Origin: Salinarchaeum sp. Harcht-Bsk1
GTDB taxonomy: Archaea > Halobacteriota > Halobacteria > Halobacteriales > Salinarchaeaceae
Assembly: GCF_000403645.1 (NCBI RefSeq)
Contig: NC_021313.1
Span: 1,217,014-1,281,013, forward strand
DNA length: 64,000 bases
Reading direction: 5' to 3'
Shown here: positions 16,194 to 61,561 of the stretch, piece after piece
Layout: every line of letters begins with the position of its first letter
How positions within the stretch are numbered: position 1 is the first letter of the stretch
Position numbers and translations under genes: made by a program
The notes under the pieces: generated by a model
The model's database searches: none
What the model was told of the DNA's origin: nothing
The model's input: the letters and a program-made list of their open reading frames with translations, nothing else

Positions 16194-16330
16194 CGCCGAG
16201 GGGGAGATTTGAACAACGGCCGGACGTGCTCGCTTCGCTGCGCGCGTCCGGTCTCGTTCAAATCACCGACGGCGTTCCTGCTGACGCAGACTCCTCGCTA
16301 CGCTCGTCGTCAGATACCAGCAGGAACGCC
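16194..16330. repeat. Duplicated tRNA-Ser 3' end and nested inverted repeats
   Basis: A 21-bp perfect copy of the tRNA-Ser 3' end region (complement of T-arm plus acceptor strand, CGCCGAGGGGGAGATTTGAA plus C) lies at 16194-16214, 133 bp from the real one at 16327-16347. Between them are two hairpins. One pairs GATTTGAAC (16206-16214) with GTTCAAATC (16256-16264). The other pairs GGCGTTCCTGCTG (16271-16283) with CAGCAGGAACGCC (16318-16330), and its second arm overlaps the tRNA 3' terminus. This looks like a remnant attachment site or an amplified palindromic element. Confidence 0.75.
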
Positions 16331-55057: not shown

Positions 55058-55203
55058 AAGCGGTTTGTTGCCCTGCGAACGGCCGTCTCGATTCCTCGAC
55101 CAACCCTACCACCACGCCGACGATTCACACGCGAAACCACACCACAGCCCGTCGAGTCGACCTTCAACAGGTACTTACACCGCGCGGGACCTCTTTTCCC
55201 ACA

Positions 55204-55266
55204 ATGAGCGAGCAGGAGGCCGAACAGAGCGATCGACAAAAGTACGAGTTAATTCCTCCACAGTAA
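55204..55266 (+). pseudogene. prf1: Orphaned 5' end of prf1 (aRF1), cut by element insertion
   Basis: ATG 55204 opens a frame whose first codons, MSEQEAEQSDRQKYE, are the expected N-terminus of haloarchaeal aRF1. The frame is interrupted after the 11-bp core AAGTACGAGTT (55240-55250), continues with four element codons and stops at 55266. A TATA-like GTACTTACACC near 55168-55178 is the probable original promoter. The remainder of the gene resumes at 60341 in the same codon register. If still transcribed, it makes only a 20-residue peptide. Confidence 0.88.
55240..55250 (+). other. Attachment-site core, left (attL)
   Basis: AAGTACGAGTT, lying in the orphan 5' fragment of prf1. It is preceded by GATCGACAA, encoding the same DRQ residues as the right junction with different codons. 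The exact identity with the right copy stops at these 11 bp. Confidence 0.8.
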
Positions 55267-55362
55267 TATTTTGTATTTCGAGTTGGCAAAATTTGCTTGA
55301 GAGTGGCGAGTGCTGGCAGCACGGCTCAAAACGCGGAAATATCTGCCGATAGTTCCGCAAAA

Positions 55363-55599
55363 TCAGAAATCCGCGTCGGAGAGCGCTGCAACCCCCGTCG
55401 GAATCGAAACTGAGACCATCAGCAACAGCATGGCTACGATGTACGGTTGAATCTCTGAGACACTCCCTCCGCTCAGTGCGACGGGGTACCCCTGCATGAA
55501 GATCGCGAGCAGGGATAGGGCTGCACCGATGTAACTCACTACTCCGATCAGAGCAAGGATGCTGCCGTAGTTTCCCGAGCCGGCTCTCGATCGTCTCAT
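55363..55599 (-). CDS. Small membrane protein of the integrated element
   Basis: 78-aa protein starting MRRSRAGSGNYG at 55599. It has two hydrophobic helices (ILALIGVVSYIGAALSLLAIF and PYIVAMLLLMVSVSIPTGVA). It is the leftmost element gene, ending about 110 bp inside the left junction. No family recognised. Confidence 0.6.
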   Translation of the reverse strand: MRRSRAGSGNYGSILALIGVVSYIGAALSLLAIFMQGYPVALSGGSVSEIQPYIVAMLLLMVSVSIPTGVAALSDADF

Positions 55600-55681
55600 G
55601 CTTCCTGTAGTGGCTGAAGCGTACAAATATGTTGCCCCGGTGGCGACGGTTAATCGAAGAAGGACTTGGTATTGAAGTACA

Positions 55682-55711
55682 TTTGTCCGAACTAAACTGT
55701 AGGTATGCAGC
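55682..55711. repeat. 30-bp direct repeat in the element, copy 1
   Basis: TTTGTCCGAACTAAACTGTA followed by GGTATGCAGC. 28 of 30 bases match 57065-57094, which lies in the 5' part of the Rep-like gene. In the Rep frame this copy would read AAYLQFSSDK, so it may be a remnant of a second Rep gene or a functional site. Confidence 0.8.
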
Positions 55712-55813
55712 TAGTCACGCCCTTGCCGCTCTATCGGATTACCCTTCTTCGAAAATGATTGCCACTGCTAACGGCGAAAATCTTTATCAATCTAGCGAAG
55801 TGTTCTCTGGATC

Positions 55814-56254
55814 ATGTCTGAGTTGATCATGAAAGCAAGAGGGGGTAAAGTGAGAATCTCAGGGAATACAAACGAACGCACTTTTTGCGGCAAGATCAAG
55901 ATATTCGATGATCGAATGGAAATCCAGCAAAGAGGAAATGTTTTCTCGAAGGGATGGATCACTATCCCATATTCGGAAATCAAGAGCATATCCCAATCGA
56001 CCCTTGGGAAGCTAACTGTTGTAACTGAATCTAACGATTATAAAGTCAGCGGGTTCTCTGGAAAAAATACTAGAAAGGATCCTGTAAAAGAAATTAAAAA
56101 ACAAATGGGTAGGGGCAGTGACTCGAAGTCTGCGAACCAAGAATTGGATTCTCCCCAAAGTGTTGCAGACGAGATCGAGAAACTTGCTGATCTGAATGAA
56201 AGAGGTGCACTAACTGACGAAGAATTCCAAGAGAAAAAAGAAGAGTTGCTTTGA
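55814..56254 (+). CDS. SHOCT-domain protein with N-terminal PH-like domain
   Basis: 146-aa basic protein of clearly lower GC than the host genes. Residues 1-80 are beta-rich with a FCGKIKIFDDRMEIQQRGN strand pair, like small bacterial/archaeal PH-type domains. Residues about 116-146 (IEKLADLNERGALTDEEFQE) are a SHOCT motif, a short helical C-terminal oligomerisation module. TATA-like TCTTTATCAA near 55780-55790 gives a leaderless start at ATG 55814. Role in the element is unknown. Confidence 0.75.
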   Translation: MSELIMKARGGKVRISGNTNERTFCGKIKIFDDRMEIQQRGNVFSKGWITIPYSEIKSISQSTLGKLTVVTESNDYKVSGFSGKNTRKDPVKEIKKQMGRGSDSKSANQELDSPQSVADEIEKLADLNERGALTDEEFQEKKEELL

Positions 56255-56287
56255 TTGGCTGTTTGGGTTGGCTACTAGTCTTGAAAC

Positions 56288-57151
56288 CTATCTTCTGTCC
56301 ATTCTCTCTCTTGAGGCGTACTCATCCAAGCGAGAGCCACCGTATCCGCCCAAGGGTTGCCACGCTCGCTTGTCCGTTGCCCAGAGGAGCGAGGCCCAGA
56401 GTCGAACGTGGCACGGCGCTTGCTGTAGATCGTTGTCCACCTGCATGGCTGGCAGATTGCTCGCAATCTCTCGCGGCAAGGCGGTGGTCCTTCCCCTCTG
56501 CGCTTCAGTCTCCGAGTCCGCTCCCTCTGGCAAGTGGGAGAGATCGTTACCGGTTACCCGATTCACCCTGATTGCTTTCTCCGGTGAATTGTCCGATTCC
56601 CGCGCAGTCGGGTGATTCCTGACGAATGAGTTTATAAAGGCCTGGAAGTCATCTTGCGCAACGGTGCCGTCAATCCAGAGAGCCACGTGGCGGTGCGTGT
56701 AGCCGGTCTGACGGGGCGAGTGGAGGGAGACGCCCACGTAGTCATCTGACGGGATGCATCGCCTTAGCGCCTTGCTCACTGCCCCTGATTGGAAACCATC
56801 GTAGTGGTCGAGAGGGTCGTACCAGAGGCCAGTATCTGCCTTGGCTCGTGCATTCAGCGAGAGCCATACGGTGTGGAGATCGTCATACTCTCGGATGCAG
56901 TAACGCTCGCAGTCAGCTACCTTGGCGAATCGGTATCGGGCCTTCGAGTGAGTGAATCGAGCAGTGTACTGGCCCTTGTTCTGGTGAGGCCCTTCCTGCT
57001 GGAGCCAATCGCAGAAGTTGGCGCTCTGTTGCGCCCACGTTTGTCCAGATAATTTGCAAAGGTGTTTGTCCGAACTAAGCTGCAGGTATGCAGCAGATTG
57101 GTTCGGTTCAGTTGCTGTACTGTCAGTATTGTATATCTCGCTTTCTTGCAT
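56288..57151 (-). CDS. Rep-like HUH endonuclease protein, possibly degenerate
   Basis: 287-aa protein. GYTHRHVALWIDGTVAQDDF contains an H-R-H (H153, H155) HUH metal-binding motif with the context found in replication initiators of haloarchaeal plasmids and pleolipovirus-like elements. The RYRFAKVADCERYC and LWATDKRAWQPLGGYGG segments also look Rep-like. I do not see an obvious catalytic Tyr motif after the HUH; the expected Y-I-A-S-N-L-P-like segment reads REIASNLP. It may therefore be inactive or truncated. Start ATG 57151 with TATA-like CACTTAAATC near 57202-57211. Confidence 0.6.
   Translation of the reverse strand: MQESEIYNTDSTATEPNQSAAYLQLSSDKHLCKLSGQTWAQQSANFCDWLQQEGPHQNKGQYTARFTHSKARYRFAKVADCERYCIREYDDLHTVWLSLNARAKADTGLWYDPLDHYDGFQSGAVSKALRRCIPSDDYVGVSLHSPRQTGYTHRHVALWIDGTVAQDDFQAFINSFVRNHPTARESDNSPEKAIRVNRVTGNDLSHLPEGADSETEAQRGRTTALPREIASNLPAMQVDNDLQQAPCHVRLWASLLWATDKRAWQPLGGYGGSRLDEYASRERMDRR
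57065..57094. repeat. 30-bp direct repeat in the element, copy 2
   Basis: TTTGTCCGAACTAAGCTGCA followed by GGTATGCAGC. It matches 55682-55711 at 28 of 30 positions and lies within the Rep-like coding sequence (AAYLQLSSDK). Confidence 0.8.
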
Positions 57152-57626
57152 CGCATATCAAGGAGAAGACGGATGCAAGCAAGGGCAGAGCTATCGGAAG
57201 ATTTAAGTGTTTCCAGCCCGTACTAAAGAGTGAGAGGCTTTGGTAAGGTCCTTCTCCCTTGCTTTCATGCTCTTAGATCGCATAGACGCTAGTCCGTAAT
57301 ATCAATCTCCTTACTACTAATTGTAGCTCCAGCTACTTAAAAGTTCTGAAAGTTCACTCTATTCGATGTAACAGCTTGTATAGATATTCTCTTCAATTGT
57401 ACTACATGTCAACTTTGTTTTTAAATATAACGATTCTGCATGCCCATTTAAATGCTGCCCGGTCGGTCGCAAAGATTGGGCGTGAAATTGTGCAGGCATA
57501 TGGCGATTTTCGTTATCGGTTGAAAGTGTCCTACCAAGAAAATTTTTGTGGGTGCGCACTGTTCGAGTCATATTGCAAATGTTATATCAATTCTTTTAAG
57601 TTGTCCGGCGCATATACTATATAAAT
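57152..57626. other. AT-rich noncoding region of the element
   Basis: 475 bp, the lowest-GC stretch in the window, especially 57290-57625 with runs such as TTTTTAAATATAACG. It holds the Rep promoter at its left and, at its right end, a strong TATA box TATACTATATAAAT (57613-57626). Open frames are short and have no supporting features. The base composition beside a rep gene suggests a replication origin. Confidence 0.5.
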
Positions 57627-57846
57627 GGAGGTAGCAGGGTTTTCGGACCCTCCGATCTTTGCCCCTGCTGCCTCCGATAAACCTACTGTCCAACGTTTCC
57701 CCTGACGGGGTACGTCTTTGCTCGTAGTGTGTCCGCAGGCTCACTGCTAGCGTGCTCATGGATCGCGGTAAGTTGTAGGGAGCGTGGTGCAACTCCCTTC
57801 GAACGACGGCACCTTGCGGGCTTTGCGAGGAAGCCCTGATTTCCTC
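57627..57846 (+). other. Hairpin-rich region before the small RHH gene cluster
   Basis: Hairpins: GGAGGTAGCAGGG (57627-57639) with CCCTGCTGCCTCC (57663-57675), enclosing CGGA-CCC-TCCG; CCCC-TGAC-GGGG (57699-57710); GGGAG...CTCCC (57776-57797); and two mutually exclusive stems near the end, GGGCTT (57818-57823) with AAGCCC (57831-57836), or GAGGAA (57827-57832) with TTCCTC (57841-57846). The first hairpin spans the predicted transcription start and could be an operator or replication origin. The last two sit just before the ATG at 57859. Confidence 0.55.
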
Positions 57847-57858
57847 GTTAGCTAAACT

Positions 57859-58017
57859 ATGTCTACTACTGATAACTATACAATGCTGCGACTGACTGAG
57901 GAAGAGCTTGATACTCTTGCCGAAGCGTCTAACGAGCGATTCGGTGAGGGAAGACAGGTGCCACGAGGCGTGTTCGTGCGTCTCCTGGCCGAAGAATATC
58001 TCGATGGTGACGGCTAA
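57859..58017 (+). CDS. 52-aa ribbon-helix-helix-like protein of the element
   Basis: Starts MSTTDNYTMLRLTEEELD. One N-terminal strand (YTMLRLT) and two helices (EEELDTLAEASNERF and PRGVFVRLLAEEYL) give the MetJ/Arc fold pattern. Its TAA overlaps the next ATG (TAATG at 58015-58019), so the three small genes form a coupled operon. Likely a DNA-binding copy-control or repressor protein. Confidence 0.65.
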   Translation: MSTTDNYTMLRLTEEELDTLAEASNERFGEGRQVPRGVFVRLLAEEYLDGDG

Positions 58018-58424
58018 TGTCTGCTACTTTCGAGAATCCCAGAGCTACCAATACTTATACAGCTGTTGTGAATCTGCCTGCTCGCGAGACTGCAATCTTG
58101 CGCGAGGCTTACGAAAGCGTCGGGGAACCGGAACCGCAAGAGGGCGTTACGCTCTCGCACAATGCTGCCGTGGTGGATTGGCTTCGGTCCGTGCTGCGTG
58201 GTGAGGTTTCACCTGACGACGTGCAGGCCAGCGAGCCGGAAGCGATCGATAGTGATGCGTACTGGCCAGTGGAGATGACGGTTACCCGCGATGAATTCGC
58301 AGCACTACGCAAGGCCAACATCTCCACTCAATCGCCAGCAAAGTCCTTCCGCCGCAATGGTGAGACCGCGCAGCGAATCAGACTCTTGCTCCGTAACTGG
58401 TGCAATGGAGTGGTCGGTGAATGA
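58017..58424 (+). CDS. 135-aa protein with two RHH-like units, element operon
   Basis: Contains two similar strand-helix-helix segments: TAVVNLPARETAILREAYES with AAVVDWLRSVLRG, and PVEMTVTRDEFAALRKANIS with AQRIRLLLRNWCNG. This suggests a fused tandem RHH-type DNA-binding protein. Start overlaps the previous stop; the end overlaps the next start by 4 bp. No exact family recognised. Confidence 0.6.
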   Translation: MSATFENPRATNTYTAVVNLPARETAILREAYESVGEPEPQEGVTLSHNAAVVDWLRSVLRGEVSPDDVQASEPEAIDSDAYWPVEMTVTRDEFAALRKANISTQSPAKSFRRNGETAQRIRLLLRNWCNGVVGE

Positions 58425-58633
58425 ACGACGTCGAGCATCTATCGGAGAACACCGTTCAACTCGCCAAGCACGTGGCCCGTCGTCACCCAGAGCTGTCGGA
58501 GGGTGCATCCCTGGAGGAGATCATTCGAACGCTTGCGGAAGAGCACCTTTCCAGCGAGTCCGTCGATTCACTGGAGACGGAGGAAGCGATTGCGCAGAAG
58601 CAAGAGGAACTGATGGAAATTCGCCGGGGATGA
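58421..58633 (+). CDS. 70-aa helical protein, element operon
   Basis: Starts MNDVEHLSENTVQLAKHVAR. Predicted all-helical with a short RHH-like ASLEEIIRTLAEEHL helix and a charged C-terminal helix (EEAIAQKQEELMEIRRG). It overlaps the preceding gene by 4 bp (ATGA). Convergent with the integrase gene, 117 bp away. Function unknown. Confidence 0.6.
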   Translation: MNDVEHLSENTVQLAKHVARRHPELSEGASLEEIIRTLAEEHLSSESVDSLETEEAIAQKQEELMEIRRG

Positions 58634-58750
58634 CTCGAATAATATCACATTCCCTATATATCTGAAACACCCCTTGTATGGGTCTTAGGGTGCCGATATC
58701 AGCCGATTCAGCCCGTCTAATGGGCATTCGGACCCCATGCAGGCAAAGAG

Positions 58751-59743
58751 TCAGTTGGAAGGCCCACGTAGCTGGTACGCCTCCCTAACCTGCTCCTCGT
58801 CATCGTGGAGATAGGTGGACGTAGTGATCTCGGTTGAGGCGTGCCCGAGTGCTTGGGAGAGAGTGTACACGTCCCACCCGTTATCGAGAGCCGCCATAGC
58901 GAACGAGTGGCGCAGAACGTGAGGAGTAACAGAGTGTCGTTCGACACCATCTGTGGTCGTGCCGTATACCTCTTGAATCCCGGCTTGCTCAGCCACTTCT
59001 CTGACCATCTCGGTTACAGCGGCCCGAGTGATACATTCGGAGTGAGACGTCGGGAAAAGATACTCACTCTCTTCGGCGTAGAAGACCGCTGGCCGTCTAT
59101 CGGTCAACCAGATGTGCATGGGAAGTGCAAGAGAGGGCTGATAGAACACAGTACGGTTCTTCCGACCCTTCCCCCTGACTGCGATAGAACGGGATTCCTC
59201 GTCAAGATCAGAAAGACGGATATCAGTTAGCTCAGAAACTCTAAGGCCAGTTTGGAACAAAAGGCGAATTATCAGTCCATCTCGGAGCTTGTCCGTCTCT
59301 TCGACCATCTGATCTACCTCGTCGGGCTTCAAGTAATGCAGGTCTTGCTTCAACTCCCGGCTCTTGATGGTAGATGTATCGTTAGGGGTGTAGTCGGCGC
59401 GGTCGGCAGGGGTATCCCGAGGCCACGGCTCACCGTCGATTCTCCCCGATGTTATGAGCTTGTTTAGTTCATCGAAGGCAGCGACCAACGCTGCATCGGC
59501 CTTCCCCACACTGGAGGCGTTGCTGTACTTCTCATCCTGCTCTCCAAGCCAATCCTCTACGTCGATCACGTCAGCCTCCTCAAAGGGCTTCTGCTCACGC
59601 AATACGTTTCCCTCGTCATCTTTCTCTCCCTCTGTAAGCCACGTTCGGAACTCGCGGATCTTGGGAACATACTGGTTAGCAGTCGCCTCAGTCTTGCTAT
59701 TTTTTACCCTCTTGATAACACGATTAAATTCGGCGTCGTTCAT
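58751..59743 (-). CDS. Tyrosine recombinase/integrase of the element
   Basis: 330-aa site-specific recombinase. The N-terminal SAM-like core-binding domain covers about residues 1-110. The catalytic domain has Arg168 (TGLRVSEL), a Lys in the GKGRKNR beta-hairpin (about 192-195), H275-x-x-R278 (PHVLRHSF), His301 (LGHAS) and nucleophile Tyr311 (TSTYLH), all intact. It presumably inserts the element at the AAGTACGAGTT core in prf1. The start overlaps the upstream RHH-like gene by 4 bp, so the two are coupled. An integrase with small accessory proteins is known from the haloarchaeal virus SNJ2; relatedness is not tested here. Confidence 0.92.
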   Translation of the reverse strand: MNDAEFNRVIKRVKNSKTEATANQYVPKIREFRTWLTEGEKDDEGNVLREQKPFEEADVIDVEDWLGEQDEKYSNASSVGKADAALVAAFDELNKLITSGRIDGEPWPRDTPADRADYTPNDTSTIKSRELKQDLHYLKPDEVDQMVEETDKLRDGLIIRLLFQTGLRVSELTDIRLSDLDEESRSIAVRGKGRKNRTVFYQPSLALPMHIWLTDRRPAVFYAEESEYLFPTSHSECITRAAVTEMVREVAEQAGIQEVYGTTTDGVERHSVTPHVLRHSFAMAALDNGWDVYTLSQALGHASTEITTSTYLHDDEEQVREAYQLRGPSN

Positions 59744-60282
59744 TGCCCAGCCCCTCGCTTCCAGTAGTAACGCCCGTCGTGATTCACGTCGCTACGCTGA
59801 ACTTCTGCCGTGGCCTCCACCATGCCATCAATGGTCCCCTCAACTTCGGGGTAGTCGGCACCAAGCAGTTGGGCGATTTCCCGTGCAGTGATAGGGTCAG
59901 CCTCCTCCACGTTCTCAGGGCCAGGTATCTCGTCATCGATCACGCAATCAGGATCTTCTGGCAGAACTGCGTAGATCGCCTTCTGGAGATCGTAGCTGGC
60001 CTCTGCCTTCTCTACTTCTTCGAGGGCAGACATGCGCTCCTCCAGATCACTGACAGCCGTCTGAATTCCCTGCACGGCGGTGAGGATTTCCCCCGAGGAA
60101 GTGTCTTCCGTGGGGTCGGCGACAGGTTGTGCGCTGGGCCGGTCGTTGTCGATCTCCCGTTGCACTGCGAGCCGGATGAGGTGGCTGATGGAATCCACTT
60201 CCGGGTTCTCCTGCACGTACTCGTCCCACTTCTCGGCCCGTGAATCGGGGACCTTTACCGTCTTGGTCGTTGTTTCTGGCAT
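59740..60282 (-). CDS. RHH-like DNA-binding protein coupled to the integrase
   Basis: 180-aa protein starting MPETTTKTVKVPDSRAEKWD at 60282. Residues 1-45 resemble a ribbon-helix-helix domain (TKTVKVPDSRAEKWDEYVQE, then SISHLIRLAVQREI). A coiled coil follows (ILTAVQGIQTAVSDLEERMS). The C-terminal part looks winged-helix-like (PITAREIAQLLGADYPEVEG, YYWKRGAG end). It is co-transcribed with the integrase and divergent from the rebuilt prf1 with only 10 bp between start codons. It may act as an excision or integration cofactor and as regulator of its own promoter. Confidence 0.75.
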   Translation of the reverse strand: MPETTTKTVKVPDSRAEKWDEYVQENPEVDSISHLIRLAVQREIDNDRPSAQPVADPTEDTSSGEILTAVQGIQTAVSDLEERMSALEEVEKAEASYDLQKAIYAVLPEDPDCVIDDEIPGPENVEEADPITAREIAQLLGADYPEVEGTIDGMVEATAEVQRSDVNHDGRYYWKRGAGQ

Positions 60283-60292
60283 AAGAGCCACC

Positions 60293-61561
60293 ATGGGGTC
60301 CACCGAGAAAAGTAATACGGAAGATTACGGAGACAGGCAGAAGTACGAGTTCAAGAAGGTCATCGAGGAGCTCGAGGAGTACGAGGGCTCCGGGACCCAG
60401 CTCGTCTCGATCTACATCCCGGGCGGCACCCGCATCAGCGAGGTGCAGGCCCACGTCACCCAGGAGCACAGCGAGGCCTCCAACATCAAGTCCAAGCAGA
60501 CGCGGACGAACGTCCAGGACGCGCTGTCCTCGATCAAGTCGCGGCTGCAGTACTACGAGGAGGCGCCGGAGAACGGGATGGTCCTCTTCTCGGGGGCCAT
60601 CGACGCCGGCGGTGGCCAGACCGACATGGTCACGAAGGTGCTCGAGAGCCCGCCGGATCCCATCGAGTCCTTCCGCTATCACTGCGACTCGAACTTCCTC
60701 ACCGGACCCCTCGAGTACATGCTCGCGGACAAGGGCCTCTACGGCCTGATCGTCCTCGACCGCCGCGAGGCAAACGTCGGCTGGCTCAAGGGTAAGCGGG
60801 TCGAGCCCGTCAAGAGCGCCTCGTCGTTGGTCCCGGGCAAGCAGCGCAAAGGTGGCCAGTCCGCCCAGCGATTCGCCCGGCTGCGCCTCGAGGCCATCGA
60901 CAACTTCTATCAGGAGGTCGCTGGGATGGCCAACGAACTGTTCGTCCCCGACCGCCACGAGATGGACGGCATCCTGGTGGGTGGCCCATCGCCCACGAAG
61001 GACGAGTTCCTCGACGGCGACTACCTCCACCACGAACTGCAGGACCTCGTCCTCGGCAAGTTCGACGTCTCCTACACCGACGAGTCCGGGCTCCACGACC
61101 TCGTCGACAACGCGTCTGAGGCCCTGGCCGACGCGGAGATCATGCAAGACAAGGAGCACATGGAGACCTTCTTCAAGCAGCTCCACGAGGGCGAGGAGGC
61201 CACCTACGGGTTCGACGCGACACGCCAGAACCTGATGATGGGCTCCGTCGAGACGCTTCTGCTCTCGGAGGATCTCCGCCAGGACGTCGTCGTCGCGGAC
61301 TGCGACGCCTGCGGCAACACGACCTACGAACTCGTCGATCGCCGCCACGCGACGCCGGGGTCGGTCGACTGCGAGGACTGCGGCGAGACGGTCGAGGTGA
61401 GCGAGGAGGACCGCGAGGACGTCATCGAACACCTGATGGCCATCGCCGAGCAGCGCGGCACGGAGACGGCCTTCATCTCCACGGACTTCGAGAAGGGCGA
61501 ACAGCTGATGGACGCCTTCGGCGGCATCGCCGGGCTGTTGCGGTATTCGACGGGCGTCTGA
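60293..61561 (+). CDS. prf1: Peptide chain release factor aRF1, N-terminus supplied by the integrated element
   Basis: 422-aa archaeal class I release factor that reads all three stop codons and triggers peptide release. Motifs: SNIKSKQTR (NIKS) and YHCDSNF (YxCxxxF) for stop-codon recognition, and KGGQSAQRFARLR with the catalytic GGQ. The C-terminal domain has a zinc-ribbon-like CDACGN...CEDCGE. From the core AAGTACGAGTT (60341) on, the gene is the host sequence. The first 16 residues, MGSTEKSNTEDYGDRQ, come from the element and rebuild the DRQKYEF junction with synonymous codons. Its promoter must lie inside the divergent RHH-like gene; ACCTTTACC near 60251-60259 is the best TATA candidate. 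Confidence 0.94.
   Translation: MGSTEKSNTEDYGDRQKYEFKKVIEELEEYEGSGTQLVSIYIPGGTRISEVQAHVTQEHSEASNIKSKQTRTNVQDALSSIKSRLQYYEEAPENGMVLFSGAIDAGGGQTDMVTKVLESPPDPIESFRYHCDSNFLTGPLEYMLADKGLYGLIVLDRREANVGWLKGKRVEPVKSASSLVPGKQRKGGQSAQRFARLRLEAIDNFYQEVAGMANELFVPDRHEMDGILVGGPSPTKDEFLDGDYLHHELQDLVLGKFDVSYTDESGLHDLVDNASEALADAEIMQDKEHMETFFKQLHEGEEATYGFDATRQNLMMGSVETLLLSEDLRQDVVVADCDACGNTTYELVDRRHATPGSVDCEDCGETVEVSEEDREDVIEHLMAIAEQRGTETAFISTDFEKGEQLMDAFGGIAGLLRYSTGV
60341..60351 (+). other. Attachment-site core, right (attR)
   Basis: AAGTACGAGTT followed by CAAGAAGGT of the intact prf1 body. It is preceded by GACAGGCAG, which encodes DRQ as in the left fragment (GATCGACAA) but with different codons. Confidence 0.8.

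What the first reader, a model, noticed from the sequence alone, without database searches (positions are those of the whole stretch)
55204..60351. Integrative element that splits and rebuilds the archaeal release factor gene prf1
The aRF1 gene body (from 60341) is complete except for its native start. The native first 15 codons with a plausible promoter sit 5.1 kb upstream at 55204-55250. Both pieces contain the 11-bp core AAGTACGAGTT in the same codon register (K-Y-E-F). The element supplies a new ATG and 16 codons at the right end, including DRQ in different codons from the left copy, so the gene is repaired at the protein level. A tyrosine recombinase and an RHH-like gene lie next to the right junction. 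Haloarchaeal elements mostly use tRNA genes. Use of an essential protein-coding gene with replacement of its N-terminus resembles SXT/R391 elements in bacterial prfC, also a release factor gene, which would be a striking convergence.
Basis: partly seen in the sequence, partly recalled or inferred. Interest (0 to 1): 0.95.

Follow-up and report, generated by a model that had tools for sequence, protein, structure and literature searches.

The report
Element that re-heads archaeal release factor
In at least five salt-loving archaea a small, likely mobile DNA element sits inside the start of the gene for the protein that ends translation, separating the gene from its own beginning and supplying a different beginning instead, which likely keeps this single-copy gene working while the element stays in place.

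Summary
The finding holds and extends. A 5,101-bp tyrosine-integrase element sits in the 5' end of prf1 (aRF1). The native promoter box and first codons lie at 55172-55250. The gene body resumes at core AAGTACGAGTT (60341), preceded by an in-frame ATG and 15 further codons from the element. Empty sites in a same-genus genome and in congeners of four other hosts break at the core (within 9 bp). Five elements (window; Haloarcula marina; Haloferax sulfurifontis; Salinibaculum rarum; one unnamed) share the integrase, its operon partner and the attachment region; other cargo differs or is weakly related. Their integrases group with 100/100 support. Each leaves a native stub that stops five codons past KYE, and each supplies its own 16-17 codon head. 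Related integrases lie in other protein genes, where the matching 50-100 bp mostly lacks an in-frame ATG and holds a stop. In the prf1 group it is open and carries GTAWTAC boxes resembling the left end, so attachment-site DNA, probable integrase promoter and aRF1 codons would overlap. Head replacement is known in bacteria (SXT in prfC, IMEs in dusA); I found no archaeal report in an open-access library. Expression, excision and aRF1 function are untested.

The parts
55172..55178 (+). TACTTAC promoter box of native prf1, centre 29 bp before the native ATG, now stranded left of the element
   Evidence: a TACTTA[CG]/TTCTTAC box is present in 37 of 39 intact congener loci inspected and in 0 of 3 element-fused ones
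55204..55266 (+). Displaced native prf1 5' stub: MSEQEAEQSDRQKYE plus LIPPQ and stop from the element
   Evidence: identical native head in G001 and P0097
55240..55250 (+). Left attachment core AAGTACGAGTT (attL); 8-bp TACGAGTT at 55243-55250 is shared by both junctions of all five copies
55261..55280 (+). Left arm-like boxes (CAGTAAT ... TGTATTTC) resembling the right end; its TAA is the stop of the stub
55363..55602 (-). Small ORF of unknown function (no Pfam, NCBIfam or PHROG match)
55814..56254 (+). Cargo ORF with SHOCT C-terminus
   Evidence: Pfam SHOCT 1e-6
56288..57151 (-). Rep-like protein, DUF1424; contains THRHVALW, reminiscent of an HUH motif (recalled)
   Evidence: Pfam 3e-11; relatives in two other prf1 elements, one of them below the cut-off
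57859..58017 (+). 52-aa ORF, weakly similar to small ORFs in G279 and G444 elements
58017..58424 (+). 135-aa ORF of unknown function
58421..58633 (+). 70-aa ORF of unknown function
58751..59743 (-). Tyrosine recombinase (integrase), intact 330 aa; R168, H275, R278, H301 and Y311 are invariant in the alignment of four (catalytic roles recalled)
   Evidence: Pfam Phage_integrase 2e-32; XerA/XerD structures by profile; alignment
59740..60282 (-). Operon partner of the integrase, RHH-like N-terminus by eye, predicted long helix and C-terminal winged helix; stop overlaps integrase start
   Evidence: partner gene found beside 39 of 42 related integrases; model pLDDT 66, weak MarR-type hits, none at E <= 0.001
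60254..60258 (+). TTTAC, TATA-like, candidate promoter of the re-headed prf1, inside the partner gene (predicted)
   Evidence: TTTAC or TTAAC centred at -34 to -37 in 5 of 5 elements
60293..60340 (+). Element-supplied ATG plus 15 codons (MGSTEKSNTEDYGDRQ) replacing the native aRF1 head
60312..60329 (.). Right arm-like boxes (GTAATACG and ATTAC) inside the new codons; on the - strand TATTAC is centred 32 bp before the partner start (possible TATA)
   Evidence: pattern GTAWTACG-N21-AARTACGARTT in 4 of 392 genomes, all element-bearing
60341..60351 (+). Right attachment core AAGTACGAGTT (attR), codons K-Y-E-F
60293..61561 (+). Re-headed prf1 (aRF1), 422 aa, only full-length copy found in the genome

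Best explanation
Window 55240-60351 is a 5.1-kb tyrosine-integrase element lying in the 5' end of the single prf1 (aRF1) gene, separating the native promoter box and first codons from the gene body and putting its own in-frame ATG plus 15 codons before the conserved KYEF, most likely through site-specific recombination by its own integrase at the short core. Shown: junctions, empty sites, chimeric ORF, and the same arrangement in five hosts. Inferred: the integrase recombines attP (right end + core + left end) with the core in prf1. The core lies where the conserved aRF1 sequence begins, so the variable N-terminal tail can be exchanged. The new head is predicted to be transcribed from a promoter inside the 5' end of the partner gene, and the partner-integrase operon from a promoter inside the new prf1 codons, since the two start codons are 7-10 bp apart and divergent. 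Excision would rejoin the native head. In related elements that split other genes the corresponding stretch mostly has no in-frame ATG and a stop, so the prf1 group likely turned attachment-site and promoter DNA into codons.
For: Empty site in same-genus G001 with breakpoints at the core; P0097, 98% identical aRF1 with the native head. Empty sites for the four other hosts: Haloferax G313 at 95.9 and 98.1% DNA identity over the two main blocks, and congeners of G444, G279 and G246. Of 42 congener loci parsed, 39 have a contiguous native head and the other 3 are element hosts. Five of five elements have stub + core + new head. Joining flanks at the core restores prf1 in 5 of 5. The five share partner and integrase; beyond that only weakly similar Rep-like and small ORFs in some. 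prf1 integrases are one side of a branch among 43, support 100/100, 0 of 500 label shuffles as low; prf1 lies within 1.5 kb of 4 of 42 related integrases, exactly those. Integrase-blind right-end pattern: 4 of 392 genomes, the same hosts, reversed control 0. Leader open with in-frame ATG in 5 of 5; among 11 related elements whose target anchor was found, 10 hold a stop and 10 lack an in-frame ATG. Odd codons: AAT in 4 of 5 leaders and AGT in 5 of 5, against AAT in 0 of 47 Asn and AGT in 3 of 119 Ser codons of the five gene bodies.
Against: No transcript, excision or attP junction seen; no free form in viral contigs, and plasmid and phage records give only integrases under 60% identity, best listed 33.6%. 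TATA-like TTTAC/TTAAC overlaps codons that may be conserved for the partner protein's own sake. The likeness of left and right arms is weak in the window copy alone (447 of 5000 shuffles as good) and in G279 (230 of 5000), clearer in the others (46, 19, 21 of 5000). One related element (L115) also has an open leader with ATG; in L066 the stop is at the far edge, leaving 16 open codons with only TTG; in L067, L068, L071 and L054 a TTG stands near the anchor; the anchor of L058 itself begins with ATG. RHH identity of the partner is by eye; the model is low-confidence.
Confidence: 0.92

Rival explanations
1. An old, immobile insertion: the element arrived once in an ancestor and is now fixed; the new head is simply how these lineages make aRF1.
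For: No free form or excised junction found.
Against: Inspected congeners of each host have intact native prf1 and each stub resembles its own host's native head; hosts lie in three families; integrase and partner ORFs are intact; cargo differs between copies.
Confidence: 0.06
2. prf1 is expressed from the stranded native promoter by read-through or trans-splicing, or from a start further downstream; the element head is fortuitous.
For: The native promoter box and ATG are intact on the left.
Against: Stub stops 5 codons past KYE; 5.1 kb with partly oppositely oriented genes follows; an in-frame ATG head is kept in 5 of 5 elements at 7-10 bp from the partner start.
Confidence: 0.03
3. Assembly or annotation artefact joining an unrelated plasmid segment to prf1.
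For: None found.
Against: Same architecture in five genomes from three families with host-like stubs; a named record, Haloferax sulfurifontis NZ_AOLM01000018.1, shows it.
Confidence: 0.01

Closest known systems
SXT/R391 ICEs in bacterial prfC (RF3)
   Same: Integration in the 5' end of a release-factor gene with new promoter and N-terminus (stated in PMC8409611, passages; 5' end of prfC in PMC4344509, passages).
   Different: RF3 and aRF1 are different proteins (recalled); SXT is about 100 kb and conjugative (PMC2654960, start of abstract in listing); here about 4-6 kb, and no conjugation gene recognised in the window copy; archaeal host and promoters.
IMEs and islands in dusA (IMEVchUSA3)
   Same: Element gives a new promoter and new N-terminus, measured by lacZ fusion (PMC8409611 section 13, passages).
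   Different: Bacterial, dusA; length kept and 61% identity over 35 residues there, whereas here head length changes (12 native, 16 new residues before K in the window) and little but the DRQ-type end is alike.
pTN3-like archaeal integrases (5' half of tRNA gene)
   Same: Archaeal integrase whose target's 5' part is replaced and expressed from the integrase promoter (PMC8371274 section 18).
   Different: tRNA gene with sequence restored, not a protein gene with a new head.
SNJ2-type integrase operons of haloarchaea
   Same: Operon of a tyrosine integrase with accessory proteins, one with a coiled coil and one with a MarR-like domain (PMC8371274 section 13); the partner here is predicted to hold a long helix and a winged helix in one protein.
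   Different: SNJ2 uses a tRNA gene; here a protein gene. Sequence relation to SNJ2 integrase not tested.
Thaumarchaeal elements in protein genes
   Same: Archaeal elements with short att sites in protein-coding genes (PMC6563490, passages).
   Different: The 14 reported there use 3'-distal regions.

Membership tests
Tyrosine-recombinase integrative element | Intact tyrosine recombinase beside one end | tested here: met
Tyrosine-recombinase integrative element | Direct-repeat core at both ends and empty site in relatives | tested here: met
Tyrosine-recombinase integrative element | Excision to a circle / attP | not testable with these tools
   no reads or PCR; no free form
5'-head-replacing elements (SXT-prfC, dusA IMEs) | Element supplies in-frame start and N-terminal codons | tested here: met
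5'-head-replacing elements (SXT-prfC, dusA IMEs) | Element supplies a working promoter | not testable with these tools
   only TATA-like spacing
SXT/R391 ICE | Conjugation genes, prfC target | tested here: not met
   Eight ORFs of the window element (52-330 aa) scanned against Pfam and NCBIfam gave no conjugation family; target is prf1
SNJ2-type element | Integrase of the SNJ2 family by sequence | not tested
   SNJ2 integrase sequence was not fetched
SNJ2-type element | tRNA target | tested here: not met
   The only tRNA in the window is at 16327; none within 1.5 kb of 42 related integrases
Suicidal (SSV/pT26-2) archaeal integrases | att site inside the integrase gene, gene split on integration (definition recalled) | tested here: not met
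   Integrase 58751-59743 intact, att outside it

The most novel reading that the evidence does not exclude
Attachment-site DNA has become protein-coding sequence of an essential translation factor: one ~60-bp stretch serves at once as integrase arm sites, promoter of the integrase operon and first 16 codons of aRF1. Because the prf1 and integrase-operon promoters would overlap and face away from each other, the element could set aRF1 supply against integrase expression, coupling excision to translation termination and making the host depend on element DNA while it is integrated.
Probability: 0.35. Interest if true: 0.87.

Novelty: new variant of a known kind. Interest (0 to 1): 0.74.

Why it matters
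It shows an archaeal solution to a general problem: how a mobile element can use an essential protein gene as its address. The core sits where conserved aRF1 sequence starts, so only a variable tail has to be supplied. Relatives that interrupt other genes without repair give a comparison for how attachment-site DNA can become coding. Haloferax sulfurifontis carries one copy and a near-identical congener has the empty site, so promoter use, excision and any effect on stop-codon read-through could be measured in culturable hosts.

Tried and rejected
Rejected: chance repeat (empty sites break at it); artefact (five genomes); tRNA targeting.

Led nowhere: genome-contig scan with the integrase profile gave 12 loci: Haloferax sulfurifontis at prf1, a partial integrase in Halostagnicola sp. 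A56 without prf1 or partner, and ten distant bacterial loci. Solved-structure search with the partner profile: best E 0.25. Structure model of the partner: low confidence, top fold hit E 7e-3. One search parsed the prf1 start wrongly for L003, L016 and L024; L003 is the window itself. One search's one-mismatch promoter search gave hits in two element loci too, so the stricter count is used.

Dropped rows: of 16 non-prf1 loci of 14 kb searched for att repeats, 10 were joined; five had no repeat of 11 bp or more, and the 11-bp repeat of L076 was not tested. For L069 the 11-bp repeat was taken over a 12-bp one because its context restored the gene. In one search the frame was chosen by eye among several open ones, since GC-rich DNA has long spurious ORFs; L117's gene was not recognised. 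In one search, 12 related elements were tried and the anchor was not found in one (L118). In one search, loci cover 12 of 15 Haloferax, 2 of 2 (G444's genus), 8 of 8 (G279's) and 20 of 31 matched Haloarcula-genus genomes. The integrase tree used 43 of 44 rows prepared; L060 gave no listed match and was left out. The search for homologous proteins scored only the candidates sharing most words.

Papers: PMC8371274 (sections 13, 18, 19 and passages), PMC8409611, PMC4344509, PMC6563490, PMC4158269 (passages only), PMC2654960 (start of abstract in the listing). Hochhut and Waldor 1999 seen only as cited.
Full report
What is there. The aRF1 ORF runs 60293-61561 and matches TIGR03676 with 546 bits, the match starting at residue 16, one residue before the K of the core. 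Left of the element, ATG 55204 opens MSEQEAEQSDRQKYE, and after the core the frame reads LIPPQ and stops at 55264. The core AAGTACGAGTT stands at 55240 and 60341, 5,101 bp apart. Between them lie an integrase (58751-59743, minus strand), its operon partner (59740-60282, minus), a DUF1424 Rep-like gene (56288-57151), a SHOCT protein and small ORFs. GC falls from 64-69% in bins wholly outside to 47-57% in bins mostly inside.

Empty sites. In same-genus G001 the head MSEQEAEQSDRQKYEFKK is contiguous; blastn blocks cover window 55104-55250 and 60338-61559. P0097, an aRF1 98% identical to the window's, has the native head. For the other four hosts, congeners give the same result. Haloferax G313 aligns to the G277 locus at 95.9% and 98.1%. 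G443, G208 and G130 do so for G444, G279 and G246. In the four comparisons the left blocks end at the last core base or one past it; the right blocks begin 0, 9, 6 and 9 bp before the core (G277, G444, G279, G246). Of 42 congener loci parsed, 3 are the element-fused ones and 39 have an intact native head; a TACTTAC-type box is found in 37 of the 39 and in none of the 3.

More copies. The integrase was searched in 392 genomes of the order: 53, the window's included, match at E <= 1e-30. G246, G277 and G279 carry partner and integrase directly at prf1. A profile search of 146 genomes of G246's family added G444; 170 genomes of G277's family gave no further close member, and the loci it returned have no prf1 nearby apart from G277 (repeats of earlier loci were not rescanned). 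Names follow from equal contig lengths: G246 Haloarcula marina, G444 Salinibaculum rarum, and G277 Haloferax sulfurifontis. Units are 5,101 (window), 5,620 (G246), 4,135 (G277), 5,483 (G279) and 4,740 bp (G444). An integrase-blind pattern of the right end found 4 of 392 genomes, the four element hosts in that sample, with no hit of the reversed control; G444 was not in the sample.

What the copies share. All-against-all comparison of ORFs shows partner and integrase common to all five; window and G277 also share a Rep-like protein (34%), weakly related in G444, and a small ORF is weakly alike in window, G279 and G444. Other cargo includes an FkbM methyltransferase and an ERCC4-domain protein. 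So a recombination module with varied cargo reuses one address. In all five the stub stops five codons past KYE.

Wider family. In a tree of 43 integrases the prf1 five are one side of a branch with support 100/100 (midpoint root). Among 42 related integrases prf1 lies within 1.5 kb of four, the partner gene beside 39, and a tRNA beside none. Of 16 related loci checked, 10 had an att-like repeat that I joined; each gives an ORF of more than 200 aa through the joint, the frame chosen by eye. From motifs I recognise (recalled, not from a call) a TspO-like protein, a TctA-like permease three times, a secretion-type ATPase twice, an AlkA-like glycosylase and an ABC permease; one case (L073) is at a gene's 3' end and one (L117) is unidentified. 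The others split the gene, with no repair seen.

From site to codons. In the five prf1 elements the stretch from partner start to KYEF is 58-60 bp, open, with an in-frame ATG 7-10 bp past the partner start. In 11 related elements with an identified target frame the stretch is 51-98 bp; 10 hold a stop and 10 have no in-frame ATG before the anchor. L115 is open with an ATG; in L066 the stop is at the far edge, leaving 16 open codons with only TTG; some others have a TTG close to the anchor. Both ends of the prf1 elements carry GTAWT and GTAWTAC-like boxes at matching distances from the core. The ungapped left-right comparison is best at offset 0 in 5 of 5, but shuffles reach it 447, 46, 19, 230 and 21 times in 5000, so the likeness is not secure in the window alone. 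The right-hand box falls on the codons for S-N-T (S-I-T in G279). These codons are foreign to the gene: AAT makes up 0 of 47 Asn codons and AGT 3 of 119 Ser codons in the five gene bodies. I read this as DNA-site constraint on coding sequence; it is an inference, and general foreign base composition could contribute. On the minus strand the box lies 31-33 bp before the partner start, about where an archaeal TATA box would sit for a leaderless or short-leader message (distance recalled); TTTAC or TTAAC lies 34-37 bp before the new prf1 ATG. Both promoters are predictions.

Partner. By eye its N-terminus looks like a ribbon-helix-helix (KTVKVP followed by two helices). Pfam gives nothing above cut-off, profile search of solved structures nothing significant. 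The model shows two N-terminal helices, a long helix and a C-terminal winged-helix-like part, mean pLDDT 66, with weak matches to MarR-type and other winged-helix proteins. SNJ2 integrase is transcribed with a coiled-coil and a MarR-like helper that raise its activity (PMC8371274 section 13), so an accessory or directionality role is plausible and untested.

Known and new. [quoted passage not shown] In archaea, the 5' half of tRNA genes with expression from the integrase promoter is known for pTN3-like integrases (PMC8371274 section 18); protein-gene insertions named there are in HMG-CoA reductase, a cation efflux gene and an AsnC gene (section 19), and 14 thaumarchaeal ones are 3'-distal (PMC6563490, passages). 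My searches of the open-access library listed no paper that I recognised as reporting prf1 as a target; most subscription papers are missing from it, and listed papers were mostly seen as titles and abstracts only. I therefore call it a new variant of a known kind: head-replacing integration in an archaeal protein gene, with attachment-site DNA that is also coding.

Limits. No transcripts, no excised form, no free copy. aRF1 essentiality rests on general knowledge and on the single full-length copy found in the window's genome and the single match in the other four. The resemblance to prfC is one of strategy, not descent.

Noticed in passing
L069 2310/7745, L115 1971/8600, L070 1306/7701 (loci oriented as): Three related elements use the same motif (NT/S-I/V-FALFAL) of a TctA-like permease, one of them in the opposite orientation.
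   Followed up: partly
L072 4449/8082 and L116 3519/8266 (loci oriented as): Two related elements split a secretion-type ATPase gene at NYLNPDV(E/K)VIAEINTPE, again a conserved motif.
   Followed up: partly
L067, L068, L071 beside the partner gene: Three related elements abut an Old Yellow Enzyme-like gene cut just before CQYSC; no left repeat of 11 bp or more found within 14 kb.
   Followed up: partly
P0125, P0217, P0218: aRF1 proteins with element-like heads (QSSTQDYGDRKK, DRSSTEEYSDKH, MASDDTSDTEQYQDKQ; the last from Halovenus marina): possible further or decayed prf1 elements; their contigs were not reached.
   Followed up: partly
G000:C1:1287345-1287899, 6.3 kb right of the window (L002): A second, distantly related tyrosine recombinase-like ORF (30% identity) in the same region of the chromosome.
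   Followed up: no
L078 10001-10405 (Halostagnicola sp. A56): Partial integrase, 65% identical over residues 79-207, with no prf1 or partner gene in the 20 kb fetched: probably a broken relative.
   Followed up: no
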